64,000 bases of DNA, from the NCBI GenBank assembly GCA_014607495.2, contig CP053168.1, positions 434,001 through 498,000 on the forward strand. The letters run 5' to 3'. The translations under genes and the position numbers were made by a program. The notes under the pieces were generated by a model. The model saw only the letters and a list, made by a program, of their open reading frames with translations, made no database searches and was not told the DNA's origin. Positions 7,222 through 51,381 of this stretch are shown one piece after another (position 1 is the stretch's first letter; each line of letters starts with the position of its first letter). Source of the stretch: Carposina sasakii. Lineage: Eukaryota > Arthropoda > Insecta > Lepidoptera > Carposinidae.

Positions 7222-7682
7222 TACAGGTTGATGTTTGGTCGTCAACGTTCCCGAAAACTACGGAATCTCCTCATCATTACGATTATTTTTCTCCATGGAA
7301 GCATACCTGGGAAGTGTCTGGTTTTTTTATTTTTATTTATTTTTGATTTTTAAAAGAATTACAATTAGGTTCAGGATGCCATTAAACCGGAGGGGTTCCC
7401 AAGATATTAGGGTCCAAAGTTGAGTAAATAGACTGCGTTTTTCTGCATCAATGCACATTGATGCGTGTAGCAAGATTTTTTCACGACAAATAATTAATAT
7501 CTGTCTATAAAAAAACTAGCATAGACACTGGACACCATAAATTTCGCCCGATCAAGTGTTTAAAAAAAAATATCAAAAAAATTAACATCGTTTCCCAGCA
7601 TTTTTTTTGGCACAAACTTACTTTATTTGATGTATAGAGTACGTACCCTTCGTTAAGGGTGGCGACGAAAAAACATCCTGTT
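7222..7682 (-). mobile_element. MITE-1, full length, reverse orientation, interrupted
   Basis: Left end tacaggttgatgtttggtcg, right end cgacgaaaaaacatcctgtt; these are the family termini in reverse. The internal blocks (cgttcccgaaaactacggaa, tactctatacatcaaataaa complement) are all present. It is interrupted at 7324-7393 by a short LINE tail. No coding capacity. Confidence 0.85.
7324..7393 (-). mobile_element. 70-bp 5'-truncated poly(A) LINE tail, antisense
   Basis: A T-rich run, then aaaagaattacaattaggtt and caggatgccattaaaccgga, inserted into MITE-1 at a ggtt duplication (7320-7323, 7394-7397). On the minus strand it ends in an A/T-rich tail (attaaaaataaataaaaa type). The same segment recurs at 25848-25929. 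Confidence 0.75.
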
Positions 7683-11145: not shown

Positions 11146-11326
11146 CGTCAGATATGAACCGACCCTAAGGCGTTCAAAATAAAGCATATAATAATATACC
11201 CAAATCTGTATAAGGGCCAATTTTCTAACAATTATCTACTTATCTGAAGGATAAATTTGATGTTGTCTCTGTCTAAAACTTGATCAAGATATAGAGAGTA
11301 CATCACAAATTGATCTTTTACCTATA

Positions 11327-11708
11327 TACAGGGTATTTTTTCGTTGCCATCCTTGACGAAGGGTACGTACTCTATACATCAAATAAAGTTTATGCCAAAA
11401 AAAAATGCGGGGAAATGATGTAAATTTTTTTGATTTTTTTTTATTTTTATTTGATCGGGTGAAATTTATAGTGTCCAGTGTTTACGCTAGTTTTATCATA
11501 GATAGATAGTAATTATTTCTCGTGAAAAAATCTTGCTATACACGTCAATGTGCATTTACGCAGAAAAACGCAGTCTATTTACTCAACTTTGGACCCTAAT
11601 ATTTTGGAAACCATACATTTCCCAGGTGATTCCATGGAGAAAAATGATCGTGATGATGAGGAGATTCCGTAGTTTTCGGGAACGTTGACAACCAAAAATC
11701 ACCTGTAT
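11327..11708 (+). mobile_element. MITE-1, full length
   Basis: Starts tacagggtattttttcgttg, ends ccaaaaatcacctgta; TA flanks both sides. Internal: gacgaagggtacgtactcta, tactcaactttggaccctaa, agattccgtagttttcggga. About 380 bp, non-coding. Confidence 0.85.
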
Positions 11709-12250
11709 AGGCTATCTGACAATAAGAAAAATCTGCGCTAAATGAAGAAGATTGGCGACCATGAAGCCTGCCAATCAGACAAGTCTCTGAAGCGTTCTAT
11801 ATCACTGAAAGAGAATTATGTGCCACAGAAAAAAGGCTTTAAAGTAAAAAAGGATTTAATTCCAACGCAGACGGGTTTAGGAGTGTCAGCAAATGTAATC
11901 ATTGCTAGCTCGTGTACGGTCTGCAAAAACGGGTACACTAGATTGTGTCGAGTTTCTTTTGTTTGCTGACTCTGTTTAATTTGTAACTGGGTATGAGAAA
12001 ACCGCACTTTTGGTGACTATTGGCTGATTTGATACTTGCTACTTCTGTATAGCCAGAATCATATCTGTATACTTTATTGTACATAGAAAACATAGTATAA
12101 TGTACAAAGGCGAGTTTATCTCTAAAAAAAACAATGTATTTCTAAGTAGTGACTTTTTTTTTAAAGAATTTAAGAAGATTAAGTCAACAAAATCAAATAA
12201 AATTCAATAACAACTTTATCGCCATCCTACATGTAATTTAAAGAATACAT
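11709..12250. other. Unassigned sequence
   Basis: A 75-codon plus-strand frame (11742-11969) has no recognisable domain. Otherwise AT-rich sequence without repeat ends. Nothing here is called as a gene. Confidence 0.35.
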
Positions 12251-12345: not shown

Positions 12346-12530
12346 TATGTGCAACACAAATAAAAATAGCTTCATTTTATAATTCAATTTAAAAATATTT
12401 ACAGTTCATATTTTCAACTAATAAATGTCCATATAACTCAACTTACCCCTGCACTCTATTCCGGACAATAATTTCACAAATTCACATCACTTTACTTTGG
12501 AATACAAACAAACAAAAAGCAAACACTGAA

Positions 12531-13298
12531 ATGGATATTTACACAAAACTAAATCAAAACATGGAAGTTATGGCAAGTGAATTCCAACAGAGAATGGGCC
12601 AGTATGAGCAGGAGCTGCGTGATGCCAAGGTTGCAAAGAGCCCTCGGATGCACGACATATCAAGCTTGTCACGGGAGTTCGCAGAATTCAAAACAATAAT
12701 GTTAAAGTCCCTTGAAATGCTCCGTTCACAGGTGGGTCTACTTGCATTAGGTCTGGACCGTTTAGAGATGGCTTCGAGGAGGAAGATAGTTCTTGTCCAT
12801 GGCATTGATGAAGAAGAGAACACCGTCATGCCAGCTGCTGCTATAACACAGGTGTTGAGTAGCCATTACAGGATGCCACAATTGGGGCAAGACATTCTTG
12901 TGTGTCATCGTCTGGGCAGTAAAAAGGACAAAGCCAGGCCAATATTAGTTAGATTTAATAAGTTCTCTTCCAAGACTGAAATGTGGAACTCCAAAGCCTG
13001 CCTTAAAGGCACCGGGGTAACTGTGACAGAATTCCTCACTAAGTATAGGCATGAAGTGTTTCTCCAAGCTAGAAAGCATTTTGGCATCCAAAAGTCTTGG
13101 ACTAGTGAGGGGAAAATTGTCATCCTGCTGCCAGATAAGTCGCGACTTAAAGTTGAGCAGATGTCTGATCTTGAGGCTGTCATGAAGAGGTTCCCTTGTG
13201 AAACAGTGAAGCCACTATCCCAGACATCGGTGGAGCCGTCGGCGTCTAGGGTTAGGCCCAAGCGTGGTCTGTCTGCGGCTGCGACCAAAAAACCTTAA
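12531..13298 (+). CDS. LINE ORF1 protein (coiled coil + RRM-like, L1-type)
   Basis: 255 residues. Nucleic-acid-binding chaperone expected to coat the LINE RNA in a ribonucleoprotein particle. Residues ~1-80 are heptad-rich (MEVMASEFQQRMGQYEQEL, EFKTIMLKSLEMLRSQVGLL), a likely trimerising coiled coil. Residues ~85-160 form an RRM-like segment (RRKIVLVHGIDEEEN ... ILVCHRLGSKKDKARPILVR), and ~160-225 a basic C-terminal domain (FLTKYRHEVFLQARKHFGIQ, KIVILLPDKSRLKVEQMSDL). The basic tail RPKRG...ATKKP may add RNA affinity. No CCHC knuckle is present, unlike Jockey gag-type ORF1. The start is the first ATG after a non-coding leader; the stop at 13296-13298 is followed by the inter-ORF spacer. No frameshift or internal stop. 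Confidence 0.85.
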   Translation: MDIYTKLNQNMEVMASEFQQRMGQYEQELRDAKVAKSPRMHDISSLSREFAEFKTIMLKSLEMLRSQVGLLALGLDRLEMASRRKIVLVHGIDEEENTVMPAAAITQVLSSHYRMPQLGQDILVCHRLGSKKDKARPILVRFNKFSSKTEMWNSKACLKGTGVTVTEFLTKYRHEVFLQARKHFGIQKSWTSEGKIVILLPDKSRLKVEQMSDLEAVMKRFPCETVKPLSQTSVEPSASRVRPKRGLSAAATKKP

Positions 13299-13766
13299 CA
13301 TTCCAGTGGTTCTTGGCTGGTTTGTCTTTCATCTAAAATTTTCCTTATGTAGAATCTTGCGGGTAAATTCATATTTGTGGGTAATAACTCAATTTTCTTT
13401 ATTTCTACATGTAAATTTAAATTTAAATTTAACCCTCATAGAAAGATTTTTTTATTAACAATTTATTTTTGAGATTTTTGATGTTTGTTTTGTTACCTGG
13501 CTGTCATTGTCACTTGCACAGACTAAGTAGATGTCACTGTTTTTTTTTGTGTCTCTTTTGTGGTAACTGTAATCCATACAGCCAGTAAGTTTGTTTTGTA
13601 CTAGCTAGACAATAATATTACTCCTAAATTTTAACACGATTGTAAAGTTTTTTCCAGTGCCCGGGGAGAGAAGGGGGTGAGATTGCGTTTGATTGTGTCG
13701 TCCCTTTTTTTTAATTTAAATAGGTATTTATTTATATTTTAAGTTTATCTTTAATATATTATTATT
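13299..13766 (+). other. LINE inter-ORF spacer
   Basis: 468 bp, AT-rich, with stops in all plus frames. ORF2 must therefore be translated by reinitiation or internal entry rather than by readthrough or frameshift. It contains T-runs and gcccggggagagaagggggt at about 13660. Confidence 0.55.
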
Positions 13767-16712
13767 ATGACAGACTTACTGATGGATCTTGATGATAGTT
13801 TTTTCTCCTGTTCCTCGTCAGATGACTATGGTAGTGCAATTAGTGATGATTCTACGGCCACGGAACTGCCTTTGCATGATCAGTTGTGTCACGTATTTAA
13901 TAATTATAAAAATAACTTAAACATTGTGCATATCAATGCGCAAAGCATTCCGGCTCATTATCCTGACCTTCTGGCATCATTTAGCAATCAGCGAATAGAC
14001 TGTATTCTAGTTTCTGAAACGTTGCTTAAGCCCTCCCTTCCATCTACTACATGTAGTCTGCCTGGATACGTTCTAGTTCGTAATGACCTAACGGAAAAGG
14101 GGTGGGGTGGTGTTGCAATGTATCTACGAGCCGATATTCCATACACAGTTATTAATCAGTCTCCAAGTAATTACACTGCATCTGCTGAACACCTGTTTGT
14201 AGAGATTTGCCTTCGACACAAAAAGTTACTAATTGGGGTTGTTTACAGTCCTTCACTACATATAGATTACTTTTCATCTTTTGAGTCTTTATTAGACTTG
14301 CTCAGTCCTCAATATGAAGATACGATTATTCTTGGCGATTTTAATACTTGTTTACTAAAAAATGACTCTCGTTCTACGAAACTTAAAAATATAATTTCAT
14401 CGTTTAATATGTACATTTTGCCATCTCGCGCTACACACCAATCTCCTCATAATCGTCCAACTCTCCTTGATCTAATAATTGTTGGTAATATCTCTAAGGT
14501 CGCGGCTCATGGACAGCTCAATGCTCCTTTTTCCTATCATGATCTAATTTACCTTTCCTACAAAGTGCGTCCTCCAAAATGTAAGTCAAAATTCGTTCTG
14601 CTACGTAGTTTTAAAAATATTAATCTAGATGCACTAAAAAGTGATGCGCTACAAATCGACTGGTCTCCCGTCTTGGAGGGTACGACCACGGATATAAAAC
14701 TGGAGCACTTTAACCGGATAATAATTTGTCTTTTTGATAAGCATGCTCCATTGAAAAAGGTTAAGGTGAAGCATCTCCCGGCGCCATGGCTTAGTGATGC
14801 TATAAGAAAATGTATGGCCAAGCGTGATCTTGCAAAACGGAAGTATAAGGGCTGTCCATCGGATATTAACTTCGTTCGTTATAAAAAGCTACGGAACTGC
14901 TGTGGTCGTATGTGTAGGGATGCAAGGAGACGTCACATCCATGAATCCATTGAAAAAAGCAGCCCAGCACAAATGTGGAAGTTTCTGAAAACCCTGGGTA
15001 TTGGCAGAAGTTCGGAAACAACCACGTGTAAGGTTGACTTAAATAATCTTAATAAATACTTCTCCTCTCCCCCCTTCTCAGTGGATACTAATTTCAAATC
15101 AAAATCTCTTTTAGCGTTAAACAGTAAACCTAGGCCTGTTTGTGATCCGTTTGAATTTACATCTATAGACTCGAGTGACGTTCGGAAGGCCATACTCTCT
15201 ATTACTTCGAAAGCTGTTGGATTTGACCAAATTCATGCCCAAATGCTGCGTCCCATTTTGGATGAGCTCTGTTTAATCATCCAGCACATTATTAACTACT
15301 CATTAACCACGAGCTCCTTCCCATCAACATGGAAAATGGCTTATGTTATTCCTCTTCCTAAAATAGCGAATCCCTCATCCTTCTCCCAGTATCGTCCCAT
15401 TTCCATCCTTCCCATTCTTTCCAAAGTCCTAGAAACTGTTGTACATAATCAACTGTCCTCCTATCTCTCCAGGAACAACTTACTTAATCCCTTTCAGTCG
15501 GGATTCAGAAGGGGACACAGTACTGTCACGGCATTATTGAAGGTTACTGATGACATCCGACTGGCTATGGACAACCAACAGCTCACCATTTTAGCTCTGC
15601 TAGATTTTAGCAGCGCCTTTAACTGTGTTGACTTCGACATTGTATTAGGCATACTTGGCTCTCTGAATGTTTCTCCACGGGTTATAGTATGGTTTACTTC
15701 TTATCTTAGGGGTCGTCTGCAGTGTATACGCTCGGATGAGTTATCATCTGACTGGTGCGAGCTTACTGCAGGCGTTCCACAGGGAGGTGTTCTTTCGCCT
15801 CTCCTATTTTCGATATTTATAAATTCTATCACTGATGTTCTTTCGTCTTGCTTCCATCTCTATGCAGACGACTTACAGCTTTATTATCACTTCAATGTTG
15901 AGGATCTGGAGTTGGCCACGTCTATGGTAAACAAAGACTTAACCAACATCCATGGCTGGGCACAGTCGTTTGGCCTCGTTGTTAATCCGGACAAATCTCA
16001 GGCTATGGTTATTGGTAGCAGGTTTAAGCAACAAATTTTAAATCAATCTAACATTCCGCAATTATTATATAATGGGGTTGTGATACCCTATACTGATAAG
16101 GCCAAGAACTTAGGTCTTACATTTGACCGTATTTTTTCGTGGTCATCTCAGGTAAGTGAGGTAAGTAGGAAAGTGCATTCCACCTTCCATGCACTTAAAC
16201 GTCTCCAAAATTTGCTACCTTTTAGCACAAAAATCACTTTAGCTCAATCCCTTCTTCTGCCACTATCAGACTATGCTGATGTTTGCTATCCTGATGCCAA
16301 TGAGGAGCTGCTCAATAAACTAGAACGTCTTCAAAATTTGGGTATTCGTTTTATATACGGCTTACGCAAGTATGACCATGTAACTCAATTTCGGAAAGAG
16401 CTCAAATGGCTCCCAATTCGACTTCGCCGGAATGTTCACATACTAACACTTCTATTTAAAATTTTATACCATATACCCTGTCCTGTTTATTTGCGTGAGC
16501 GATTTGATTATCTGTTCTCAAGAGATCGCCCACTACGATCAGCTACTACTTCTCTTCTTAAAACTCCCCGTCATCATTCTGTTGCATATGACTACTCCTA
16601 CACTGTCTATGCAGTCAAGCTGTGGAACTCACTACCGCACACCATACGTGATTGTCCTACAATTGACATCTTTAAGAGACAAGTAAAGGCATACTACCTT
16701 TCTCTTCCTTAG
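13767..16712 (+). CDS. LINE ORF2: AP-type endonuclease and reverse transcriptase
   Basis: 981 residues, uninterrupted. It nicks target DNA and reverse-transcribes LINE RNA from the nick. After an acidic/Ser-rich leader (1-50) comes an EEP endonuclease (about 51-265): N57 in HINAQS, E84 in SETLL, GGVAMYLRADIP, GVVYSPS, D191 and N193 in LGDFN, D235 in LLDLI, and S256/H258/D259 in SYHD, the full catalytic set. The linker (~270-460) is basic. The RT domain (~500-760) has YVIPLPK, YRPISILPILSKVLE, FQSGFRRGHST, D613 in LLDFSSAFN, AGVPQGGVLSPLLFSIFINS, YADD at 699-702, and NPDKSQAM. The C-terminal part ends with PLRSATTSLLKTPRHH and KLWNSLPHTIRDC. All three RT aspartates are present. No RNase H and no zinc knuckle seen. 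It is the best-preserved enzyme in the window. Confidence 0.93.
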   Translation: MTDLLMDLDDSFFSCSSSDDYGSAISDDSTATELPLHDQLCHVFNNYKNNLNIVHINAQSIPAHYPDLLASFSNQRIDCILVSETLLKPSLPSTTCSLPGYVLVRNDLTEKGWGGVAMYLRADIPYTVINQSPSNYTASAEHLFVEICLRHKKLLIGVVYSPSLHIDYFSSFESLLDLLSPQYEDTIILGDFNTCLLKNDSRSTKLKNIISSFNMYILPSRATHQSPHNRPTLLDLIIVGNISKVAAHGQLNAPFSYHDLIYLSYKVRPPKCKSKFVLLRSFKNINLDALKSDALQIDWSPVLEGTTTDIKLEHFNRIIICLFDKHAPLKKVKVKHLPAPWLSDAIRKCMAKRDLAKRKYKGCPSDINFVRYKKLRNCCGRMCRDARRRHIHESIEKSSPAQMWKFLKTLGIGRSSETTTCKVDLNNLNKYFSSPPFSVDTNFKSKSLLALNSKPRPVCDPFEFTSIDSSDVRKAILSITSKAVGFDQIHAQMLRPILDELCLIIQHIINYSLTTSSFPSTWKMAYVIPLPKIANPSSFSQYRPISILPILSKVLETVVHNQLSSYLSRNNLLNPFQSGFRRGHSTVTALLKVTDDIRLAMDNQQLTILALLDFSSAFNCVDFDIVLGILGSLNVSPRVIVWFTSYLRGRLQCIRSDELSSDWCELTAGVPQGGVLSPLLFSIFINSITDVLSSCFHLYADDLQLYYHFNVEDLELATSMVNKDLTNIHGWAQSFGLVVNPDKSQAMVIGSRFKQQILNQSNIPQLLYNGVVIPYTDKAKNLGLTFDRIFSWSSQVSEVSRKVHSTFHALKRLQNLLPFSTKITLAQSLLLPLSDYADVCYPDANEELLNKLERLQNLGIRFIYGLRKYDHVTQFRKELKWLPIRLRRNVHILTLLFKILYHIPCPVYLRERFDYLFSRDRPLRSATTSLLKTPRHHSVAYDYSYTVYAVKLWNSLPHTIRDCPTIDIFKRQVKAYYLSLP

Positions 16713-21062: not shown

Positions 21063-21157
21063 TTACCTAGTGTCGCTCCCACGGCAAAGACGAATCTAAT
21101 GATACCTCTCAAGCTCAACGACCAGCCGTTTAGGCTCTAAAGCGTGCCAAAGACATA

Positions 21158-21537
21158 TACAGGATGTTTTTTCGTTGCCACCCTTAACGAAGGGTACGTA
21201 CTCTATACATCAAATAAAGTAAGTTTATGCCACAAAAAAAAAATGCTGGGAAACGATGTAATTTTTTTTTTAATTACTCGATCGGGCGAAATTTATAGTG
21301 TCCAGTGTTTATGCTGGTTTTTTCATAGACAGTTATTAATTATTTCTCGTGAAAAAATCTTGCTACGCGCGTCTATGTGCATTTATGCAGAAAAACGCAG
21401 TCTATTTACTCAACTTTGGACCCTAATATCTTGGGAACCAGACACTTCCCAGGTATGCTTACATGCAGAAAAATTCACGTGATGATGAGGAGATTCCGTA
21501 GTATTCGGGAACCTTGACGACCAAAAATCACCCTGTA
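21158..21537 (+). mobile_element. MITE-1, full length, nested
   Basis: tacaggatgttttttcgttg to aaaatcaccctgta, TA-flanked. Internal family blocks are intact, including gaagggtacgtactctatac and tggaccctaatatcttggga. Lies inside the CCCGACTGCG element. Confidence 0.85.
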
Positions 21538-21596
21538 TAGTAACATACAAACATATTCTCGAAAAACCATAACCCTCCTTCTGACGCAGTCGGGTA

Positions 21597-27592: not shown

Positions 27593-27746
27593 TGATCTAT
27601 AATTTTAATTTCAGCCACCACCTCCACTGCAACCTATTGGACTACATCCAGCACCTAGATACCCCAGGTCCTGATTAGGTCTTTGGTCCAACGTTGCCAA
27701 TATGTAATTTAGAAAAGAGATGGTAAAATTCGTCATCCGAGTAATT

Positions 27747-27819
27747 GACCCGGTGGCTCAGTGGTGAGAGCGCTGACACGCGGAATGCAGAGGTCGTGGG
27801 TTCGATTCCCACCCGGGTG
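27747..27819 (+). repeat. tRNA-like SINE head (tRNA pseudogene)
   Basis: The sequence folds as a tRNA: acceptor gacccgg/ccgggtg (6 of 7 pairs), D stem GCTC/GAGC, T arm gtggg-ttcgatt-cccac. It has A-box (tggctcagtggtgagagc) and B-box (ggttcgattcc) promoters. The anticodon stem has only three pairs, so a working tRNA is unlikely. A T-run and attaataa-rich tail follow, and a related piece is at 48800, pointing to a SINE head. Confidence 0.6.
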
Positions 27820-27899
27820 AGGATTTTTTTCCATTTCTTTATTAATAATTTTATAATTATTTATTTTCAAATTCAATGTTCATTATTTTTAACACTGGA

Positions 27900-28770: not shown

Positions 28771-28802
28771 TTTGATCGGTGATCGGTAAAAATTATTAAT
28801 AT

Positions 28803-29150
28803 ACATATGTTTTTTAGTTGCCACCCTTAACGAAGGGTACATACTCTATACATCAAATAAAGTATAAGTTTATGCAAAAAAAATATTTATTTATTTATTT
28901 TTCGGGCAAAATTTATAGTGTCCAGTGTTTATGCTAGTTTTATCATAGATATATATTGATTATTTCTCGTGAAAAAAATCTTGCTTCGCGCATTTATGCA
29001 GAAAAACGCAGTCTATTTACTCAACTTTGGACCCTAATATCTTGGGAACCAGACAATTCCCAGGTATGCTTCCATGGAGAATAATGATCGTGACGATGAG
29101 GAGATTCCGTAGTTTTCGGGAACGTTGACGACCAAAAATCACCTTGTATA
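28803..29150 (+). mobile_element. MITE-1, nearly full length
   Basis: gttttttagttgccaccctt to aaaaatcaccttgta with most internal blocks; the left-terminal cagggtg is eroded and a short internal deletion follows ttcgcgcatttatgcag. Confidence 0.8.
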
Positions 29151-29439
29151 AACGCACAGGACAAACCGGGCTAGAAACTTAAAAATTCCGAACCCGAATT
29201 AATCTTAAGAAGCATAATCAGCGATCCGCACCGGTTCTGCTGGTTGCAATGCTGATACGGAATTCCTCTCTGTCTCAGTCGTCGGCGGCCGCTAGTTTAT
29301 AGATAAAATAATCAATTCACACACTATCTGTATATCAAAGATACACATACATGTAAATTCAAAATTCAAAGTACGCTTTGATAAGCCTAGTACCTCCATT
29401 AGTATATGTCGGTGAACTTAGCAACTCGTTTTCCAGCAG

Positions 29440-29920
29440 CTCAAAAATAAATCTGAGTTCTATTCTAGTGCAGGTGAGTTCTACAGTTCCTGATACTTTT
29501 TATAAATAGTTCTGGCATTTTTACCCTGAAAAACTTAAATTGAAAAAATGAGCTGCTAACTTCCCGTAGCAGATCACTTTTCAGTAAATGAAAAAAAAAT
29601 GAGAGTTCTATTAGCAAACAGGTGAGTTCTATAGTTCCTGATACTTTTTACAAATAGTTCTGCCCTTTTTCCATGAAAAACGTCAATTGAAAAATGAGCT
29701 GCTAACTTCCCGTAGCAGATCACTTTACAGCAAATCAAATTTTAATGGGTGTTATATTCACATGCAGCTCAGTTCTACAGTTCTTGATAGTTATTATAAA
29801 TAGTTCTGTTGTTTTAACCTCTAAAAACGTCAATTGATGATAATCTGATAACTTGCCATAGAAAATCAATTCACAGCGGATCATGTAAGTTTATCGTTCC
29901 AAACAATTTTTAATGAATAA
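29440..29920 (+). repeat. Left subterminal ~165-bp repeats (three copies)
   Basis: Three diverged copies contain caggtgagttctacagttcc, tgatactttttataaatagt and atgagctgctaacttcccgt, starting at about 29440, 29600 and 29760. They are mirrored at 37020-37480. Confidence 0.8.
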
Positions 29921-29949
29921 CTCTTTCACAATATATTATTCCGTAGCAG

Positions 29950-32900
29950 ACCTGCAACCTGAAACTAAACTGAAGTCCAGAACTCACGTATAAAATCCAG
30001 CAGCTCATACCGGAATGTAGAAAATACACAAAGTATATAAAAACATTTTCAATCGTTCAAAAAAAATCTCAAAACTTCTCAACAGCCAGAACTCTTTTGT
30101 TTTACATAGACCTGGAGTAGACCTGCAACCTGATACTAAAATCAAGCCCAGAACTCACGTAAAAGTTCCAGCAGCTCACACCTGAATGTAAAAAACACAC
30201 AAAAAATATAAAAACACTATCAATCGTTAAAAAAAAAATCTCAAAGCTTCTCAACAGCCAGAACTCTTTTGTTTTTCTATAGACCTGGAGTAGACCTGCA
30301 AACTGATACTAAAACCAAGCCCAGAACTCACGTAAAAGTTCCAGCAGCTCACACCTGAATGTAAAAAATACACAAAAAATATAAAACACTTTCAATCGTA
30401 CAAAAAAAAATCTCAAAGCTTCTCAACAGCCAGAACTCTTTTGTTCTCCAAAGACCTGGAGTAAACCTGCAACCTGATACTAAAATCAAGCCCAGAACTC
30501 ACGTAAAAGTTCCAGCAGCTCACACCTGAATGTAGAAAATACACAAAAAACATAAAAACACTATCAATCGTTCAAAAAAAAATCTCAAAGCTTCTCAACA
30601 GCCAGAACTCTTTTGTTTTTCTATAGACCTGGAGTAGACCTGCAAACTGATACTAAAACCAAGCCCAGAACTCACGTAAAAGTTCCAGCAGCTCACACCT
30701 GAATGTAAAAAATACACAAAAAATATAAAACACTTTCAATCGTACAAAAAAAAATCTCAAAGCTTCTCAACAGCCAGAACTCTTTTGTTCTCCAAAGACC
30801 TGGAGTAAACCTGCAACCTGATACTAAAATCAAGCCCAGAACTCACGTAAAAGTTCCAGCAGCTCACACCTGAATGTAGAAAATACACAAAAAACATAAA
30901 AACACTTTCAATCGTTCAAAAAAAAATCTCAAAGCTTCTGAACAGCCAGAACTCTTTTGTTTTCTATAGACCTGGAGTACACCTGCAACATGATACTAAA
31001 ATCAAGCCCAGAACTCACGTAAAAGTTCTAGCAGCTCACACCTGAATGTAGAAAATACACAAAGAATATAAAAAAAATTCAATCGTTCAAAAAAAAATCT
31101 TAAAGCTTCTCAACAGCCAGAACTCTTTTGTTTTCCATAGACCTGAAGTAGACCTGCAACCTGATACTAAAATCAAGCCCAGAACTCACGTAAAAGTTCC
31201 AGCAGCTCACACCTGAATGTAGAAAATACACAAAAAACATAAAAACACTTTCAATCGTTCAAAAAAAAATCATAAAGCTTCTCAACAGCCAGAACTATTT
31301 TGTTTTCCAAAGACCTGGAGTAGAACTGTAACCTGATACTAAAATCAAGCCCAGAACTCACGTAAAAGTTCCAGCAGCTCACACCTGAATGTAGAAAATA
31401 CAAAAAGTATGCACAAACTTTTCAATCGTTCAAAAAAAAATCTAAAAGCTTCTCAACAGCCAGAACTCTTTTGTTTTCCATAGAACTGGAGTAGACCTGC
31501 AACCTGATACTAAAATCAAGCCCAGAACTCACGTAAAAGTTCCAGCAGCTCACACCTGAATGTAGAAAATACACAAAAAACATAAAAACACATTCAATCG
31601 TACAAAAAAAATCTCAAAGCTTCTCAACAGCCAGAACTCTTTTGTTTTCCATAGACCTGGAGTAGACCTGCAACCTGATACTAAAATCAAGCAAAGAACT
31701 CACGTAAAAGTTCCAGCAGCTCACACCTGAATGTAGAAAATACACAAAGAATATGAAAACAATTTCAATCGTTCAAAAAAAAAACTCAAAGCTTCTCAAC
31801 AGCCAGAACTCTTTTGTTTTCCATAGACCTGGAGTAGACCTGCAACCTGATACTAAAATCAAGCCCAGAACTCGCGTAAAAGTTCCAGCAGCTCACAACT
31901 GAATGTAGAAAATACAAAAAGTATGCACAGACTTTTCAATCGTTCAAAAAAAAATCTCAAAGCTTCTCAACAGCCAGAACTATTTTGTTTTCCAAAGACC
32001 TGGAGTAGAACTGTAACCTGATACTAAAATCAAGCCCAGAACTCACGTAAAAGTTCCAGCAGCTCACACCTGAATGTAGAAAATACAAAAAGTATGCACA
32101 AACTTTTCAATCGTTCAAAAAAAAATCTAAAAGCTTCTCAACAGCCAGAACTCTTTTGTTTTCCATAGAACTGGAGTAGACCTGCAACCTGATACTAAAA
32201 TCAAGCCCAGAACTCACGTAAAAGTTCCAGCAGCTCACACCTGAATGTAGAAAATACACAAAAAACATAAAAACACATTCAATCGTACAAAAAAAATCTC
32301 AAAGCTTCTCAACAGCCAGAACTCTTTTGTTTTCCATAGACCTGGAGTAGACCTGCAACCTGATACTAAAATCAAGCAAAGAACTCACGTAAAAGTTCCA
32401 GCAGCTCACACCTGAATGTAGAAAATACACAAAAAACATAAAAACACATTCAATCGTACAAAAAAAAATCTCAAAGCTTCTCAACAGCTAGAACTCTTTT
32501 GTTTTCCATAGACCTGGAGTAGACCTGCAACCTGATACTAAAATCAAGCAAAGAACTCACGTAAAAGTTCCAGCAGCTCACACCTGAATGTAGAAAATAC
32601 ACAAAAAACATAAAAACACTTTCAATCGTTCAAAAAAAATCTCAAAGCTTCTCAACAGCCAGAACTCTTTTGTTTTCCATAAACCTGGAGTAGACCTGCA
32701 ACCTGATACTAAAATTAAGCCCAGAACTCACGTAAAAGTTCCAGCAGCTCACACCTGAATGTAGAAAATACAAAAAGTATGCACAGACTTTTCAATCGTT
32801 CATAAAAAAAAACTCAAAGCTTCTCAACAGCCAGAACTCTTTTGTTTTCAATAGACCTGGAGTAGACCTGCAACCTGATACTAAAATGAAGCCCAGAACT

Positions 32901-33524
32901 CACATAAAAGTTCCAGCAGCTCACACCTGAATGTAGAAAATACACAAAAAACATAAAAACACTTTCAATCGTACAAAAAAAAATCTCAAAGCTTCTCAAC
33001 AGCCAGAACTCTTTTGTTTTCCATAGACCTGGAGTAGACCTGCAACCTGATACTAAAATCAAGCAAAGAACTCACGTAAAAGTTCCAGCAGCTCACACCT
33101 GAATGTAGAAAATAAAGAAAGAATATAAAAACAATTTCAATCGTTCAAAAAAAAATCTCAAAGCTTCTCAACAGCCAGAACTCTTTTGTGTTCCATAAAC
33201 CTGGAGTAGACCTGCAACCTGATACTAAAATCAAGCCCAGAACTCACGTAAAAGTTCCAGCAGCTCACACCTGAATGTAGAAAATACAAAAAGTATGCAC
33301 AGACTTTTCAATCGTTCAAAAAAAAAATCTCAAAGCTTCTCAACAGCCAGAACTCTTTTGTTTTCCATAGAACTGGAGTAGACCTGCAATCTGATACTGA
33401 AATCAAGCCCAGAACTCACGTAAAAGTTCCAGCAGCTCACACCTGAATGTAGAAAATACAAAAAGTATGCACAGACTTTTCAATCGTTCAAAAAAAAATC
33501 TCAAAGCTTCTAAACAGCCAGAAC
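29950..33524 (+). repeat. Left satellite array, about 21 units of ~172 bp
   Basis: Unit landmarks are gcccagaactcacgtaaaag, ttccagcagctcacacctga, atgtagaaaatacacaaaaa, tttcaatcgttcaaaaaaaa, ctcaaagcttctcaacagcc and agacctggagtagacctgca. Successive gaactcacgt sites are spaced 171-173 bp. Superimposed higher-order repeats are visible: a dimer (344 bp) repeated at about 30299 and 30643, and a ~690-bp tetramer at about 31288 and 31979. Confidence 0.9.
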
Positions 33525-33528
33525 AGGC

Positions 33529-36500
33529 TATCAGGCTGCAGGTCTACTCCAGTTCTATGGAAAACAAAAGAGTTCTGGCTGTTAAGAAGCTTTGAGATTT
33601 TTTTTGAACGATTGAAAAGTTTGTGCATACTTTTTGTATTTTCTACATTCAGGTGTGAGCTGCTGGAACTTTTACGTGAGTTCTGGGCTTGATTTTAGTA
33701 TCAGGTTGCAGGTGTACTCCAGGTCTATAGAAAACAAAAGAGTTCTGGCTGTTCAGAAGCTTTGAGATTTTTTTTTGAACGATTGAAAGTGTTTTTATGT
33801 TTTTTGTGTATTTTCTACATTCAGGTGTGAGCTGCTGGAACTTTTACGTGAGTTCTGGGCTTGATTTTAGTATCAGGTTGCAGGTCTACTTCAGGTCTAT
33901 GGAAAACAAAAGAGTTCTGGCTGTTGAGAAGCTTTAAGATTTTTTTTTGAACGATTGAAATTTTTTTTATATTCTTTGTGTATTTTCTACATTCAGGTGT
34001 GAGCTGCTAGAACTTTTACGTGAGTTCTGGGCTTGATTTTAGTATCAGGTTGCAGGTGTACTCCAGGTCTATAGAAAACAAAAGAGTTCTGGCTGTTCAG
34101 AAGCTTTATGATTTTTTTTTGAACGATTGAAAGTGTTTTTATGTTTTTTGTGTATTTTCTACATTCAGGTGTGAGCTGCTGGAACTTTTACGTGAGTTCT
34201 GGGCTTGATTTTAGTATCAGGTTGCAGGTCTACTTCAGGTCTATGGAAAACAAAAGAGTTCTGGCTGTTGAGAAGCTTTAAGATTTTTTTTTGAACGATT
34301 GAATTTTTTTTTATATTCTTTGTGTATTTTCTACATTCAGGTGTGAGCTGCTAGAACTTTTACGTGAGTTCTGGGCTTGATTTTAGTATCAGGTTGGAGG
34401 TGTACTCCAGGTCTATAGAAAACAAAAGAGTTCTGGCTGTTCAGAAGCTTTGAGATTTTTTTTTGAACGATTGAAAGTGTTTTTATGTTTTTTGTGTATT
34501 TTCTACATTCAGGTGTGAGCTGCTGGAACTTTTACGTGAGTTCTGGGCTTGATTTTAGTATCAGGTTGCAGGTCTACTCCAGGTCTATGGAAAACAAAAG
34601 AGTTCTGGCTGTTGAGAAGCTTTGAGATTTTTTTTTGTACGATTGAAAGTGTTTTTATGTTTTTTGTGCATTTTCTACATTCAGGTGTGAGCTGCTGGAA
34701 TTTTTACGTGAGTTCTGGGCTTGATTTTAGTATCAGGTTGCAGGTCTACTCCAGGTCTATGGAAAACAAAAGAGTTCTGGCTGTTGAGAAGCTTTGAGTT
34801 TTTTTTATGAACGATTGAAAAGTCTGTGCATACTTTTTGTATTTTCTACATTCAGGTGTGAGCTGCTGGAACTTTTACGTGAGTTCTGGCCTTGATTTTA
34901 GTATCAAGTTGCAGGTCTACTCCAGGTTTATGGAAAACAAAAGAGTTCTGGCTGTTGAGAAGCTTTGAGATTTTTTTTTGAACGATTGAAATTTTTTTTA
35001 TATTCTTTGTGTATTTTCTACATTCAGGTGTGAGCTGCTGGAACTTTTACGTGAGTTCTGGGCTTGATTTTAGTATCAGGTTGCAGGTCTACTTCAGGTC
35101 TATGGAAAACAAAAGAGTTCTGGCTGTTGGGAAGCTTTGAGATTTTTTTTTGAACGATTGAAATTTTTTTTATATTCTTTGTGTATTTTCTACATTCAGG
35201 TGTGAGCTGCTGGATTTTTTACGTGAGTTCTGGGCTTGATTTTAGTATCAGGTTACAGGTCTACTCCAGGTCTTTGGAAAACAAAAGAGTTCTGGCTGTT
35301 GAGAAGCTTTGAGAATTTTTTTTTGAACGATTGAAAAGTCTGTGCATACTTTTTGTATTTTCTACATTCAGGTGTGAGCTGCTGGAACTTTTACGTGAGT
35401 TCTGGGCTTGATTTTAGTATCAGGTTACAGGTCTACTCCAGGTCTATGGAAAACAAAAGAGTTCTGGCTGTTGAGAAGCTTTGAGATTTTTTTTTGAACG
35501 ATTGAAATTTTTTTATATTCTTTGTGTATTTTCTACATTCAGGTGTGAGCTGCTGGAACTTTTACGTGAGTTCTGGGCTTGATTTTAGTATCAGGTTACA
35601 GGTCTACTCCAGGTCTATGGAAAACAAAAGAGTTCTGGCTGTTGAGAAGCTTTGAGATTTTTTTTTGTACGATTGAATGTGTTTTTATGTTTTTTGTGTA
35701 TTTTCTACATTCAGGTGTGAGCTGCTGGAACTTTTACGTGAGTTCTGGGCTTGATTTTAGTATCAGGTTGCAGGTCTACTTCAGGTCTATGGAAAACAAA
35801 AGAGTTCTGGCTGTTGAGAAGCTTTGAGATTTTTTTTTGAACGATTGAAATTTTTTTTATATTCTTTGGGTATTTTCTACATTCAGGTGTGAGCTGCTGG
35901 AACTTTTACGTGAGTTCTGGGCTTGATTTTAGTATCAGGTTACAGGTCTACTCCAGGTCTATGGAAAACAAAAGAGTTCTGGCTGTTGAGAAGCTTTGAG
36001 ATTTTTTTTTGTACGATTGAAAGTGTTTTTATGTTTTTGTGTATTTTCTACATTCAGGTGTGAGCTGCTGGCACTTTTACGTGAGTTCTGGGCTTCATTT
36101 TAGTATCAGGTTGCAGGTCTACTCCAGGTCTATTGAAAACAAAAGAGTTCTGGCTGTTGATAAGCTTTTAGATTTTTTTTTTAACGATTGAAAAGTTTGT
36201 GTATACTTTTTGTATTTTCTACATTCAGGTGTGAGCTGCTGGAACTTTTACGTGAGTTCTGGGCTTGATTTTAGTATCAGGTTACAGTTCTACTTCAGGT
36301 TTTTGGAAAACAAAAGAGTTCTGGCTGTTCAGAAGCTTTGAGATTTTTTTTTGAACGATTGAAAAGTCTGTGCATACTTTTTGTATTTTCTACATTCAGG
36401 TGTGAGCTGCTGGAACTTTTACGCGAGTTCTGGGCTTGATTTTAGTATCAGGTTGCAGGTTTACTCCAGGTCTTTGGAGAACAAAAGAGTTCTGGCTGTT

Positions 36501-36965
36501 GAGAAGCTTTGAGATTTTTTTTGTACGATTGAAAGTGTTTTATATTTTTTGTGTATTTTTTACATTCAGGTGTGAGCTGCTGGAACTTTTACGTGAGTTC
36601 TGGGCTTGATTTTAGTATCAGGTTGCAGGTCTACTCCAGTTCTATAGAAAAACAAAAGAGTTCTGGCTGTTGAGAAGCTTTGAGATTTTTTTTTGTACGA
36701 TTGAAAGTGTTTTTATATTTTTTGTGTGTTTTTTACATTCAGGTGTGAGCTGCTGGAACTTTTACGTGAGTTCTGGGCTTGATTTTAGTATCAGTTTGCA
36801 GGTCTACTCCAGGTCTATAGAAAAACAAAAGAGTTCTGGCTGTTGAGAAGCTTTGAGATTTTTTTTGAACGATTGAAAATGTTTTTATATACTTTGTGTA
36901 TTTTCTACATTCCGGTATGAGCTGCTGGATTTTTTACGTGAGTTCTGGACTTCAGTTTAGTTTCA
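33529..36965 (-). repeat. Right satellite array, about 20 units of ~172 bp, inverted
   Basis: Same unit in reverse (ggtgtgagctgctggaactt, acgtgagttctgggcttgat, caaaagagttctggctgttg). Variants such as gtgcatactttttgtatttt and atttttttatattctttgtg alternate in an order that matches the left arm only for the outermost three or so units. Confidence 0.9.
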
Positions 36966-37019
36966 GGTTGCAGGTCTGCTACGGAATAATATATTGTGAA
37001 AGAGTTATTCATTAAAAAT

Positions 37020-37480
37020 TGTTTGGAACGATAAACTTACATGATCCGCTGTGAATTGATTTTCTATGGCAAGTTATCATATTATCATCAATTGACGTTT
37101 TTAGAGGTTAAAACAACAGAACTATTTATAATTACTATCAAGAACTGTAGAACTGAGCTGCATGTGAATATAACACACATTAAAATTTGATTTGCTGTAA
37201 AGTGATCTGCTACGGGAAGTTAGCAGCTCATTTTTCAATTGACGTTTTTCATGGAAAAAGGGCAGAACTATTTGTAAAAAGTATCAGGAACTATAGAACT
37301 CACCTGTTTGCTAATAGAACTCTCATTTTTTTTTCATTTACTGAAAAGTGATCTGCTACGGGAAGTTAGCAGCTCATTTTTTCAATTTAAGTTTTTCAGG
37401 GTAAAAATGCCAGAACTATTTATAAAAGGTATCAGGAACTGTAGAACTCACCTGCACTAGAATAGAACTCAGATTTATTT
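37020..37480 (-). repeat. Right subterminal ~165-bp repeats (three copies)
   Basis: Reverse of the left block: acgggaagttagcagctcat, gtatcaggaactgtagaact and cacctgcactagaatagaac. Near-identical to the left side, closer than the inner arrays are to each other. Confidence 0.8.
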
Positions 37481-37709
37481 TTGAGCTGCTGGTAAATGAG
37501 CTGCTAAGTTCACGGACACCATTAGTATGAAACCGGAAGTTCTCGAGCGGAAGTGACGTTCCGGTAGTTGGCCCCGACAAATTCAATATCCTTTGGATCT
37601 TTAAGAATTCAGTATCGCTTTGCTGTTTGTAAAAATAGAGAACTATTTACGAGCGGAAAAAATATAAGTATCTGTTTTTGCATAGAGGAATAAGATGTAG
37701 ACATAGAGT

Positions 37710-39231: not shown

Positions 39232-39610
39232 TACAGGATATTTTTGTTGCCACCCTTTACGAAGGGTACGTACTCAATACATCAAATAAAGTAAGTTTAT
39301 GCAAAAAAAAATGCTGGGAAACGATGTTAATTCTTTTGTTTTTTTTTAATCACTTGATCGGGCGAAATTATTGTGTCCAGTGTATGTGTTAGTTTTTTAT
39401 GGCCTTTTTCAAATTATTTTTCGTAAAAAAATCTTGTTACGCGCGTCCATGTACATTTATGCAGAAAAACGCAGTCTTTTTACTCAACTTTGGACCCTAA
39501 TATCTTGGGAACCAGACACTTCCCAGGTATGCTTTTATGGAGAAAAATGATCGTGATGACGTAGAGATTCCGTGGTATTCGAAAACGTTGATGACCAAAA
39601 AAACACTGTA
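39232..39610 (+). mobile_element. MITE-1, full length
   Basis: tacaggatatttttgttgcc to ggtgttcaaaaacactgta-type end, TA at both sides. It abuts MITE-3 with only the two TA dinucleotides (tata, 39609-39612) between them. Confidence 0.8.
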
Positions 39611-40009
39611 TACTGGGTGCAAAAAGACAACTTTCTTCTTTTAATGCCTCGTATTCTTTGTAATATCACGATAATTTTTTTCTATGGAAATACCCCTGGG
39701 AAACCACAGGTTTCCAAGATATTGAGGTCCAAAGTTACATTAATATTATAATTTTTTTTACATAAATCCATCTGAAATCGGTTAACAAACATTTTTTTCA
39801 AAGATACCATGTCAAAATGTTATAATGTTAGTTTTGTAGGTACATTTGTACTTTGCGCATCAAACGAATACATTGCTTGCAATAAAATGACAGTATTTTT
39901 TCGTAATTTTTTTGTCGTTTCCCAGGGTTGGTTCCATAGAAGAAAATGATCGTAACCTTACAAAGAATACGAGGTATTAAAAAACATCGTTGTCTTTTTA
40001 CATCCTGTA
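39611..40009 (+). mobile_element. MITE-3, full length
   Basis: Ends tactgggtgcaaaaagacaa and ttgtctttttacatcctgta form terminal inverted repeats with TA outside. Internal: tcgtattctttgtaatatca, tctgaaatcggttaacaaac, aagataccatgtcaaaatgt, ttacaaagaatacgaggtat. Second copy at 54666-55054. Confidence 0.8.
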
Positions 40010-42832: not shown

Positions 42833-43147
42833 ATATCTATAACTAGCCGGAATGTATATAAATCGACTAAAGATTAACAACATACTAATTTAATATTATT
42901 TATAGGTCATAGTAGCTACACAGTGAAGTGTCAAGTAATTAATTATTATTATTATCGGTGTGTTGCGACAACGAACGTCGATGCCTAACGATGTTACTTT
43001 GTCTAAGCAAAATATACAATACACATACACAACAAAATATATAACAAAAAGCGCTCTCATATAAGAATTCTCTATTCACGCCACTATAGGACAACTGACT
43101 TTTAGCAGTTCTCCTAGATTTTTTTATGTATAAAAATTAACATACTA
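42833..43147. other. Unassigned sequence
   Basis: ttgcgacaacgaacgtcgat at 42963 recurs, diverged, near 19264 and 28383. No gene. Confidence 0.35.
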
Positions 43148-43509
43148 TACAGGTGTTATTTGGTCATCAACGTTCTCAAAAATTACGGAATCTCCTCATC
43201 ATCACGATCATTGGAAGTATCTGGTTCCCAAGATACGAGTATTAGAGTCCAAAGTTGAGTAAAAAGACTGCGTTTTTCTGCATAAATGAACATAGTCGCG
43301 CGTAGCAAGATTTTTCACTAGAAATAATTAATATACCTATTCTATGAAAAAACTAGCATTAACATTTGACACTATAAAATTCGCGTGATCAAGTTTTTTT
43401 ATTTTTTTTTTATTTACACCGTGTCCCAGCATTTTTTTGGCATAAACTTACTTTATTTGATGTATAGAGTACGTACCCTTCGTTAAGGATGGCAACGAAA
43501 AAACACCCT
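43148..43509 (-). mobile_element. MITE-1, full length, reverse
   Basis: tacaggtgttatttggtcat to ggcaacgaaaaaacaccctt; internal ctcctcatcatcacgatcat, ttgagtaaaaagactgcgtt and tgatgtatagagtacgtacc. Confidence 0.8.
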
Positions 43510-43811
43510 TAATATAAAATGACAATCGACAAATAACTTGTGTATGCTTTCATGTCGAACAAATGATTTCAATTTCTATATATCATATTCTACTATGTAT
43601 TATTATCTTACTCTACAGATATGTCTCAGCCAGTGTACAGGAATATAAACCGTTTGCCAGGCTGCTATCGGCGGGAAACGTGAGCGTTTAGCATTTGTAC
43701 ACCCCGTGGAATGTTGAACTAGGTCTTATAGGTCGAGCTGGATAGGGTTAAGCGACCCTAGCTGTGGTCGATTGTTGGATGGGTTATCATAGATTATATA
43801 ATACCTTACTA

Positions 43812-50605: not shown

Positions 50606-51283
50606 TTTTTATAGTATAAATCAGTCTTATATAGGTAAAACAAGAGTTGATCTAACTAATAGAAGTAGGATGTAAGGTCTGAACACAAGTATTATGACAG
50701 TTTTGAAACATGGCAACCTTAGTATAAAACACTAATCATTTATCAATTATTATAACTACTTTGACTTGGCCTTCTACCATTGTAAAAGTAGTAAAAAAGA
50801 CTATTGTGTTATTTTAATTTGCACTACGAACAATTCTGCCAATTCTTTCATAGGTAGGTACATACATATCTCTCTATACGTATAATATAAAATGCTATGG
50901 GCTGTATGACTGACTGACGGAGCACAGCCTAAATACTTTTTTTTTTATTGGGGGGCTTTATTTATAAATTCTATATGTATCACTGATCCTATACATACAT
51001 ACAAAACAGTAGGCGATTAATTAAATTTTGTACTTCCTGTAAACATGGTCCAGTTTAAAAATTGTTCCTAAATTGGAAACTTCAGTATGTTTACGTTGGC
51101 ATAACGTTTACTATTTGTTATTCTTATGCTTTTAACATTTTAGATTCTTGAGAAAGTTTGATAAACGTTGGTGAAATCGGCCCAATCAAGTAGAACTTAC
51201 ATACAAAAAAACTTTTTCTTACCCTTTGCAGGTAGACTTAAATTTTATACAATGATAACATACATAGGCGCGCTTATAGACGT
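50606..51283. other. Unassigned AT-rich sequence
   Basis: Nothing supported; gatcctatacatacatacaa near 50984 may be a degraded tail. Confidence 0.35.
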
Positions 51284-51365
51284 GTCCGTGAACTTAGCAG
51301 CTCATTTACCAGCAGCTCAAAAATAAATCTGAGTTCTATTCTAGTGCAGGTGAGTTCTACAGTTC
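51284..51365 (+). mobile_element. Solo end of the palindromic satellite-armed element
   Basis: gtgtccgtgaacttagcagc, tcatttaccagcagctcaaa, aataaatctgagttctattc and tagtgcaggtgagttctaca match the outer ~80 bp of both arms of the 29406-37520 element, then homology stops abruptly. Confidence 0.8.
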
Positions 51366-51381
51366 CTGACAAAATAGAGTT

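What the first reader, a model, noticed from the sequence alone, without database searches (positions are those of the whole stretch)
29406..37520. Gene-less 8.1-kb giant palindrome built from inverted satellite arrays, bounded by an 8-bp target duplication
Seen: homologous inverted ends, the flanking duplication attagtat (29398-29405, 37521-37528), three-layered mirrored arms and a near-zero spacer. Satellite arrays are normally not bounded by a transposon target duplication, and MITEs are normally <1 kb. Inference: a non-autonomous DNA transposon (foldback-like) whose subterminal repeats grew into satellite arrays, so an apparent satellite is mobile. A transcript through it would be a multi-kb perfect dsRNA and thus a strong siRNA/piRNA source.
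Basis: partly seen in the sequence, partly recalled or inferred. Interest (0 to 1): 0.93.

Follow-up and report, generated by a model that had tools for sequence, protein, structure and literature searches.

The report
Mobile satellite-built giant palindromic transposon
An 8-kb stretch of a genome that is likely a moth's or butterfly's, made of two mirror-image satellite arrays, is one of at least 24 such elements scattered through that genome, up to 27 kb long and 22 of the 24 flanked by a perfect duplicated target site; they are likely cut-and-paste transposons that carry satellite DNA from place to place.

Summary
The palindrome is real. It runs 29406-37519 (8,114 bp); the flanking duplication is 9 bp (CATTAGTAT), not 8. 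The arms are about 95% identical, not perfect (longest exact stretch 250 bp). The assembly (399 Mb; protein matches point to Lepidoptera) holds 85 exact copies of the terminus. I found 24 two-ended elements of 2.3-27.4 kb: 22 have a perfect 9- or 10-bp duplication, against none in 2,000 shuffles of mispaired flanks. All 21 pairs with exact ends have one L-type and one R-type end. In 18 of 19 elements read in full, opposed 172-bp arrays meet with at most 19 bp between them. Five elements at five sites share one centre junction, so the palindromic form was most simply copied by transposition; in one of the five the centre is flipped relative to the tips. Arms within an element differ less (0.46%) than random pairings (1.15%), yet five L/R differences persist in the outer 27 bp. 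Some one-ended stumps keep the duplication, as aborted repair after excision would leave. No transposase was found; a 620-aa DUF7869 ORF in one copy lies in a nested transposon. Best reading: a non-autonomous foldback-type (probably Mutator-like) family, a variant of Tetris/Tm1/Galileo. The genome search for Mutator transposases did not complete.

The parts
29397..29405 (.). 9-bp target-site duplication, left copy (CATTAGTAT)
29406..37519 (.). whole element, 8,114 bp, one copy of a family of at least 24 two-ended elements
29406..29432 (+). L-type terminus (ATGTCGGTGAACTTAGCAACTCGTTTT); L/R-specific bases at positions 1, 6, 19, 23, 27
29430..29837 (+). 146-bp repeat layer of the left arm, 2.5-2.8 copies; related to the element's own terminal stretch
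29838..29947 (+). spacer of the left arm outside both repeat arrays
29948..33524 (+). 172-bp satellite array of the left arm, 20.8 units
33525..33528 (.). centre: 4-bp filler AGGC joining two arrays broken at different unit positions; junction private to this copy among 18 compared in both orientations
33529..36977 (-). 172-bp satellite array of the right arm, 20.1 units
36978..37087 (-). spacer of the right arm outside both repeat arrays
37088..37482 (-). 146-bp repeat layer of the right arm, 2.7 copies
37493..37519 (-). R-type terminus (GTGTCCGTGAACTTAGCAGCTCATTTA)
37520..37528 (.). 9-bp target-site duplication, right copy (CATTAGTAT)
51282..51369 (+). solo R-type end of the same family, 88 bp, identical to the right end of the palindrome over that length; no partner end was found and no clear duplication remains (5 of 9)

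Best explanation
The palindrome is one of at least 24 dispersed elements with the same two ends, 22 of them inside a perfect target duplication, and it is likely a non-autonomous foldback-type cut-and-paste DNA transposon predicted to be moved by a Mutator-like transposase encoded elsewhere. Each of the 21 exact pairs has one L-type and one R-type end, and the fixed L/R differences found lie in the outer 27 bp (shown). Inside lies a 146-bp repeat layer related to the terminus and then an array of 172-bp units, from about 4 to 108 units per arm, whose length is uncorrelated between the two arms (shown). The arrays meet head to head because the original middle, which presumably held the transposase gene, was lost by deletions with end points inside the arrays, most likely through aborted repair of the gap left by excision (inferred). 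Fourteen different centre junctions in 18 elements mean this loss, or later breakage at the centre, happened repeatedly (junctions shown, process inferred). At least one palindromic form then spread, since five elements at five target sites share one centre junction (shown; transposition is the simplest reading). In one of the five the shared centre is inverted relative to the tips (shown), as crossing-over between the two arms would do (inferred). Arms of one element are on average more alike than random pairings although their tips stay different, so arms are likely homogenised by recombination while selection keeps one L and one R tip (inferred). The arrays may act as extra transposase-binding platforms, as proposed for Galileo (inferred).
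For: Terminus pattern: 85 exact genome hits, 0 for the reversed control; 21 convergent pairs, paired without regard to type, all 21 L+R. Target duplications: 22 of 24 perfect (20 of 9 bp, 2 of 10 bp), C22a 8/9, C27b sharing only CCGTTAT out of register; 0 perfect in 2,000 mispaired shuffles. All 18 joined elements show two opposed arrays, as does C22a; the five others were sampled, 40 of 40 stretches matching the array (one over 201 of 300 bases), with one orientation switch per element. One shared centre, 69 of 69 bases, at five loci with five different duplications, and no other alike pair among 18 in either orientation; C17a has it flipped relative to its tips. Within-element L-R divergence 0.46% against 1.15% permuted, n=17, p<=5e-5; five L/R-specific positions, all within 27 bp. 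Of 31 solo ends tested, 4 carry at least 8/9 of a duplication at the truncation point, null mean 0.19, at most 3 in 5,000 shuffles. Unit 51-mer: 687 exact genome copies, 483 inside the 19 fully read elements.
Against: No autonomous copy or transposase was identified, and the Mutator-family search (PF10551) did not complete in repeated tries. The only transposase-like ORF seen inside a family member belongs to a nested transposon with its own 37-bp inverted repeats and 4-bp duplication. The shared centre could also spread by gene conversion between elements. The arm homogenisation is a trend, not a rule: in 11 of 17 elements, the window copy included, at least one foreign R end is as close to the L arm as the element's own R arm, or closer. 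Array units next to the centre do not clearly follow the flip of C17a. Only 4 to 6 of 31 solo ends show a duplication; the rest, the one in this window included, may be ordinary deletions. No reads were available to confirm array lengths.
Confidence: 0.86

Rival explanations
1. An assembly artefact: two arrays misjoined, or a fold-back read taken as genomic.
For: Reads were not available; palindromes are known trouble spots for assembly (recalled).
Against: Arms differ in sequence, unit order and length; 24 loci show the structure; five loci on four contigs share one centre; flanks carry 9- or 10-bp duplications.
Confidence: 0.03
2. An ordinary satellite array that was inverted in place, with the duplication by chance.
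For: The unit is tandem, and private duplications show array turnover.
Against: 22 of 24 perfect duplications at element ends, constant ends, and the listed exact unit copies lie inside or beside element ends (first 100 of 687).
Confidence: 0.02
3. The family belongs to another superfamily with 8-9-bp duplications (hAT, P or Merlin; sizes recalled) rather than Mutator-like.
For: No transposase has been linked; a hAT transposase gene lies in the same window. Foldback structures arise in more than one superfamily (Tetris discussion, PMC4079207).
Against: Duplications are 9 or 10 bp in all 22 perfect cases, none of 8; the Mutator/foldback family Tm1 also has 9-bp duplications and different motifs at its two ends (PMC3169594).
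Confidence: 0.2
4. Palindromes arise by copying one arm (inverted duplication of a half element) rather than by loss of a middle between two pre-existing arms.
For: Within an element the two arms are on average more alike than random pairings.
Against: The two tips differ in all 21 exact pairs, array lengths of the two arms are uncorrelated (Spearman -0.10, p=0.69), and in the window copy the units next to the centre are not the most alike.
Confidence: 0.15

Closest known systems
Tetris of Drosophila virilis (PMC4079207; abstract, one results section and part 1 of the discussion read)
   Same: Apparently non-autonomous, long inverted ends with an outer flanking domain and internal tandem repeats of about 220 bp, 8-10-bp duplications, repeats forming satellite-like arrays, no transposase found, Mutator suggested from duplication size.
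   Different: Tetris inverted ends reach 1,735 bp and it has a middle domain; its authors suggest that larger arrays may have disrupted transposition. Here arms reach 19 kb, array and element are still one unit inside intact duplications, and no middle remains in 18 of 19 copies read in full.
Tm1 Mutator/Foldback family of root-knot nematodes (PMC3169594; abstract and one section read)
   Same: 9-bp duplications, variable numbers of tandem units per arm, and different motifs at the two tips (A1 and A2), as L and R here.
   Different: Tm1 units are mostly about 14 bp and 1-9 per arm; the two ends of one Tm1 element average 93% identity; some copies encode a putative transposase resembling the Phantom subclass.
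Galileo, including its 2-TIR copies, in Drosophila mojavensis (PMC3573991; passages read)
   Same: Copies built almost only of inverted ends, tandem-repeat expansion in the arms, recombination and conversion proposed to act on the arms.
   Different: Galileo 2-TIR copies average 1.7-2.2 kb and belong to the P superfamily; here 2.3-27.4 kb with 9-10-bp duplications.
Satellite-carrying Helentrons of oyster and DINE-1 (PMC7492417, PMC4067079; search listings only)
   Same: Tandem satellite-like repeats dispersed inside a non-autonomous mobile element (oyster title and abstract beginning).
   Different: Those are rolling-circle elements, which are recalled not to make target duplications; here arrays are inverted pairs with 9-10-bp duplications.

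Membership tests
Foldback-type element | Long inverted ends with internal tandem repeats | tested here: met
   arms of 1.2-19.2 kb with 146-bp and 172-bp repeats
Foldback-type element | Target duplication of 8-10 bp | tested here: met
   22 of 24 perfect, 9 or 10 bp
Foldback-type element (as in Tetris) | Middle domain between the arms | tested here: not met
   at most 19 bp in 18 of 19 fully read copies; 746 bp in C6b. Copies made only of arms are known in Galileo, so this lowers the match to Tetris rather than to foldback structure in general
Mutator-like (MULE) superfamily | Duplication around 9 bp | tested here: met
Mutator-like (MULE) superfamily | Transposase of the MULE type in an autonomous relative with the same ends | not tested
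   The genome search with PF10551 did not complete
MITE | Short (usually under 600 bp, Galileo paper) | tested here: not met
   two-ended copies of 2.3-27.4 kb
P superfamily (Galileo) | 7-8-bp duplication (recalled) | tested here: not met
   none of the 22 perfect duplications is 7 or 8 bp
Helitron/Helentron | No target duplication, no long inverted ends (recalled) | tested here: not met
Free satellite DNA | Arrays outside any element | tested here: inconclusive
   483 of 687 exact unit 51-mers lie in 19 fully read elements; 20 more listed ones lie beside the L end at C2:732312; the other 184 were not placed

The most novel reading that the evidence does not exclude
A satellite that lives only as a transposon: the 172-bp repeat exists in this genome essentially as the body of a gene-less mobile palindrome of up to 27 kb. 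Excision and gap repair are the engine that shuffles and homogenises its arms, flips its core and repeatedly fuses it at the centre, while selection preserves two different 27-bp tips. Here a satellite family is born, lengthened and dispersed by transposition itself rather than by unequal exchange in heterochromatin.
Probability: 0.45. Interest if true: 0.78.

Novelty: new variant of a known kind. Interest (0 to 1): 0.66.

Why it matters
Long zero-spacer palindromes are held to be unstable, and satellites are usually thought to spread by unequal exchange (both recalled). Here two dozen 2-27-kb palindromes made of satellite DNA sit at scattered sites, nearly all inside intact target duplications. 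That makes several questions directly testable: how large a palindrome a transposase can mobilise, whether tandem arrays in transposon arms raise transposition, whether arm homogenisation comes from gap repair, and whether such hairpins feed small-RNA silencing. It also looks like a natural record of excision repair, with shared and private centre junctions, a flipped core and one-ended stumps.

Tried and rejected
Autonomous copy: the 4,974-bp insert with a 620-aa DUF7869 ORF in element C2b first looked like the family's transposase. It was rejected because it has its own 37-bp inverted repeats and a 4-bp duplication (ATAT) inside one array unit. Its close relatives include a beetle protein at 79% identity. 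The AlphaFold model (made on the relative P0121, mean pLDDT 69.9) gave only weak matches to RNase H-like nucleases and transposases (no Foldseek E <= 0.001).

Homology of the 172-bp unit to the terminus: no better than shuffles. Mirror collinearity of array units across the window's arms: not above chance over all units (p=0.41) or interior only (p=0.95). Similarity of C6b's 744-bp centre to C2b's insert or to the window: nothing convincing. Support for the C17a flip from the ten units next to the centre: inconclusive. Terminus patterns in viral contigs and genome contigs: 0; those collections hold viral and prokaryote sequence. Literature: no paper in the library holds the word DUF7869; in searches for Lepidoptera or butterfly with foldback, satellite or inverted-repeat terms none of the listed titles and abstract beginnings describes this element. 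That speaks for this library only.

Rows dropped: the R end of C31b from the arm comparison, because it is split by a nested 4,665-bp insertion; six solo ends whose match ran 341 bp or further in the 370 bases fetched, and four with shared flanks, from the stump test; array units with spacing outside 155-190 bp; partial centre units. In one search the comparison of the copy at 51282 was off by one base; one search corrects it.
Full report
What is there. The window holds an inverted structure of 8,114 bp at 29406-37519. Its left arm is 29406-33524, its centre AGGC 33525-33528 and its right arm 33529-37519; the arms align at 94.9% over 4,001 columns. From the outside in, each arm has a terminus, 146-bp repeats (about 2.5-2.8 copies), a short spacer and an array of 172-bp units (20.8 left, 20.1 right). 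No ORF of 150 aa or more lies inside. The longest exact inverted stretch is 250 bp, so a transcript would make long but imperfect dsRNA.

Where it is. The window lies at G000:C21:434001-498000 in an assembly of 399 Mb in 31 contigs. For the 985-aa reverse-transcriptase ORF at 13755-16712, the organisms named among the 120 relatives listed (of 193) are Mythimna, Heliothis, Parnassius, Euphydryas, Plutella, Colias, Tuta, Aphomia, Melitaea and Loxostege, all Lepidoptera (recalled). The source is therefore likely a moth or butterfly.

A family. The terminus RTGTCSGTGAACTTAGCARCTC occurs 85 times exactly, 0 times for the reversed control. Pairing neighbouring convergent ends within 60 kb without regard to type gives 21 pairs, and all 21 are one L-type (ATGTCGG...AACTC) and one R-type (GTGTCCG...AGCTC). 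Three more pairs with slightly altered ends (C7a, C8c, C19) came from the similarity searches. Of these 24, 20 have a perfect 9-bp and 2 a perfect 10-bp duplication, C22a has 8 of 9, and C27b shares only CCGTTAT out of register; 2,000 shuffles of mispaired flanks gave no perfect case. I read 19 in full (18, C22a). The other five I read at the ends and in 40 samples of 300 bases: all 40 match the array, one of them over 201 bases only, with one orientation switch per element; a short middle between samples is not excluded in three of them (C9, C19, C31a). In the 18 elements sizes run from 5.0 to 27.4 kb, median 11.8 kb; C22a is 2.3 kb. Arms of those 18 carry about 4 to 108 units, and the lengths of the two arms are uncorrelated (Spearman -0.10, p=0.69; the R arms of C2b and C31b include nested insertions).

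The centre. In 18 of the 19 fully read copies the opposed arrays meet with at most 19 bp between them; C6b has 746 bp of unknown origin. Eighteen centres were compared in both orientations: five elements (C22b, C17a, C14, C11b, C11a) share one junction, 69 of 69 bases, with the filler TATCAGTATTTACTATCAA, and no other pair is alike, the window's centre included. The five sharers have five different duplications, so a palindromic form has most simply been copied to new sites. When all are turned L end first, C17a carries the shared centre inverted relative to the other four; crossing-over between the two arms would do this (inferred), though the units beside the centre neither confirm nor exclude it. 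The arrays of the five differ in length (31-72 whole units in L arms, 17-39 in R arms, as filtered) and keep only short collinear blocks, with matched units 0.4-1.0% apart, so arrays turn over fast.

Arms and tips. Between positions 28 and 540 the two arms of one element differ by 0.46% on average, against 1.15% for random pairings (n=17, C31b dropped; p<=5e-5 in 20,000 permutations). Arms of different elements differ by 1.16-1.19% whether L-L, R-R or L-R. Yet five positions, 1, 6, 19, 23 and 27, separate 18 L ends from 17 R ends (position 23 with 2 exceptions), and no further one was found up to about position 720 at the 80% criterion. I infer recombination between arms, with selection for one L and one R tip. 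It is a trend: in 11 of 17 elements at least one foreign R end is as near as the own one or nearer, and the window copy is among these.

Excision traces. Forty-one solo ends were looked at, 40 fetched plus the one at 51282-51369 in this window. After dropping six whose match ran 341 bp or further and four with shared flanks, 31 were tested for the 9-mer next to the terminus recurring at the truncation point. Three match 9 of 9 (L063, L073, L085) and one 8 of 9 (L069); two more share 7 exact bases (L088, L090). Shuffled pairings average 0.19 cases of at least 8 of 9 and reached at most 3 in 5,000. A stump of 36-326 bp between two copies of the duplication is what one-sided, aborted repair after excision would leave (inferred). 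The other 25 of 31 show nothing clear; the solo end in this window has 5 of 9.

The satellite. The 1,116 whole units from 36 arms differ by 4.7% within an arm, 4.8% between arms and 5.4% between elements. A 51-base stretch of the unit occurs 687 times exactly in the genome (0 control), 483 of them in the 19 fully read elements; the 100 places that were listed all lie in C2a, C2b, C6a or beside the L end at C2:732312. The remaining 184 were not placed, so a free array is not excluded. The 146-bp layer is related to the terminus (72-78%), but the 172-bp unit is not detectably so.

Transposase. None is known. The DUF7869 ORF in C2b is inside a nested transposon. The genome search with the MULE family did not complete. 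Assignment to the Mutator-like group rests on the 9-10-bp duplications and the resemblance to Tm1 and Tetris.

Compared with what is known. Tetris (PMC4079207, abstract and two sections in part), Tm1 (PMC3169594, abstract and one section) and Galileo (PMC3573991, passages) between them show the main ingredients: array-bearing inverted ends, copies made almost only of ends, different tips, satellite formation. What differs here is scale (arms to 19 kb, elements to 27 kb), the near-universal absence of a middle, and evidence that array-built palindromes remain intact units at many target sites. I rate it a new variant of a known kind.

Noticed in passing
G000:C2:9151235-9156208 (L019/L020): A 4,974-bp transposon nested in one array unit, with 37-bp inverted repeats (CGACGCTTGAAAGG...) and a 4-bp duplication ATAT, encoding a DUF7869 protein; DUF7869 may thus be a DDE-type transposase family (D540, D618, E668 of P0121 conserved in 90% or more of 47 sequences). 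A beetle relative at 79% identity suggests horizontal transfer.
   Followed up: partly
window 2136-4012 (+): hAT-type transposase remnant in two overlapping frames (BED finger just below its Pfam cut-off, hAT dimerisation domain above it).
   Followed up: no
window 12393-16712 (+): Jockey-like LINE (name recalled) with a 301-aa upstream ORF and a 985-aa endonuclease/reverse-transcriptase ORF that is open throughout.
   Followed up: partly
window 27746-27821 (+): tRNA gene found by Rfam and ARAGORN, which reads it as tRNA-Pro(CGG).
   Followed up: no
G000:C6:14963471-14964214 (L011:1472-2215): 744 bp with several related GACGCGCTCGAGTA-like motifs between the opposed arrays of element C6b; possibly the last remnant of the lost middle. 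Its genome search did not complete.
   Followed up: partly
window 7394-7681, 11324-11710, 21155-21540, 28799-29150, 39232-39612, 43143-43515: A dispersed repeat of about 390 bp present at least six times in the window, at 73-90% pairwise identity.
   Followed up: no
24 target duplications: The ninth base of the left flank copy is C or G in 17 of 24 and A in only 1, a possible weak target preference.
   Followed up: no
G000:C31:3481798-3493801 (element C31b): A 4,665-bp insertion sits about 95 bp inside the R end of this element, not identified.
   Followed up: no
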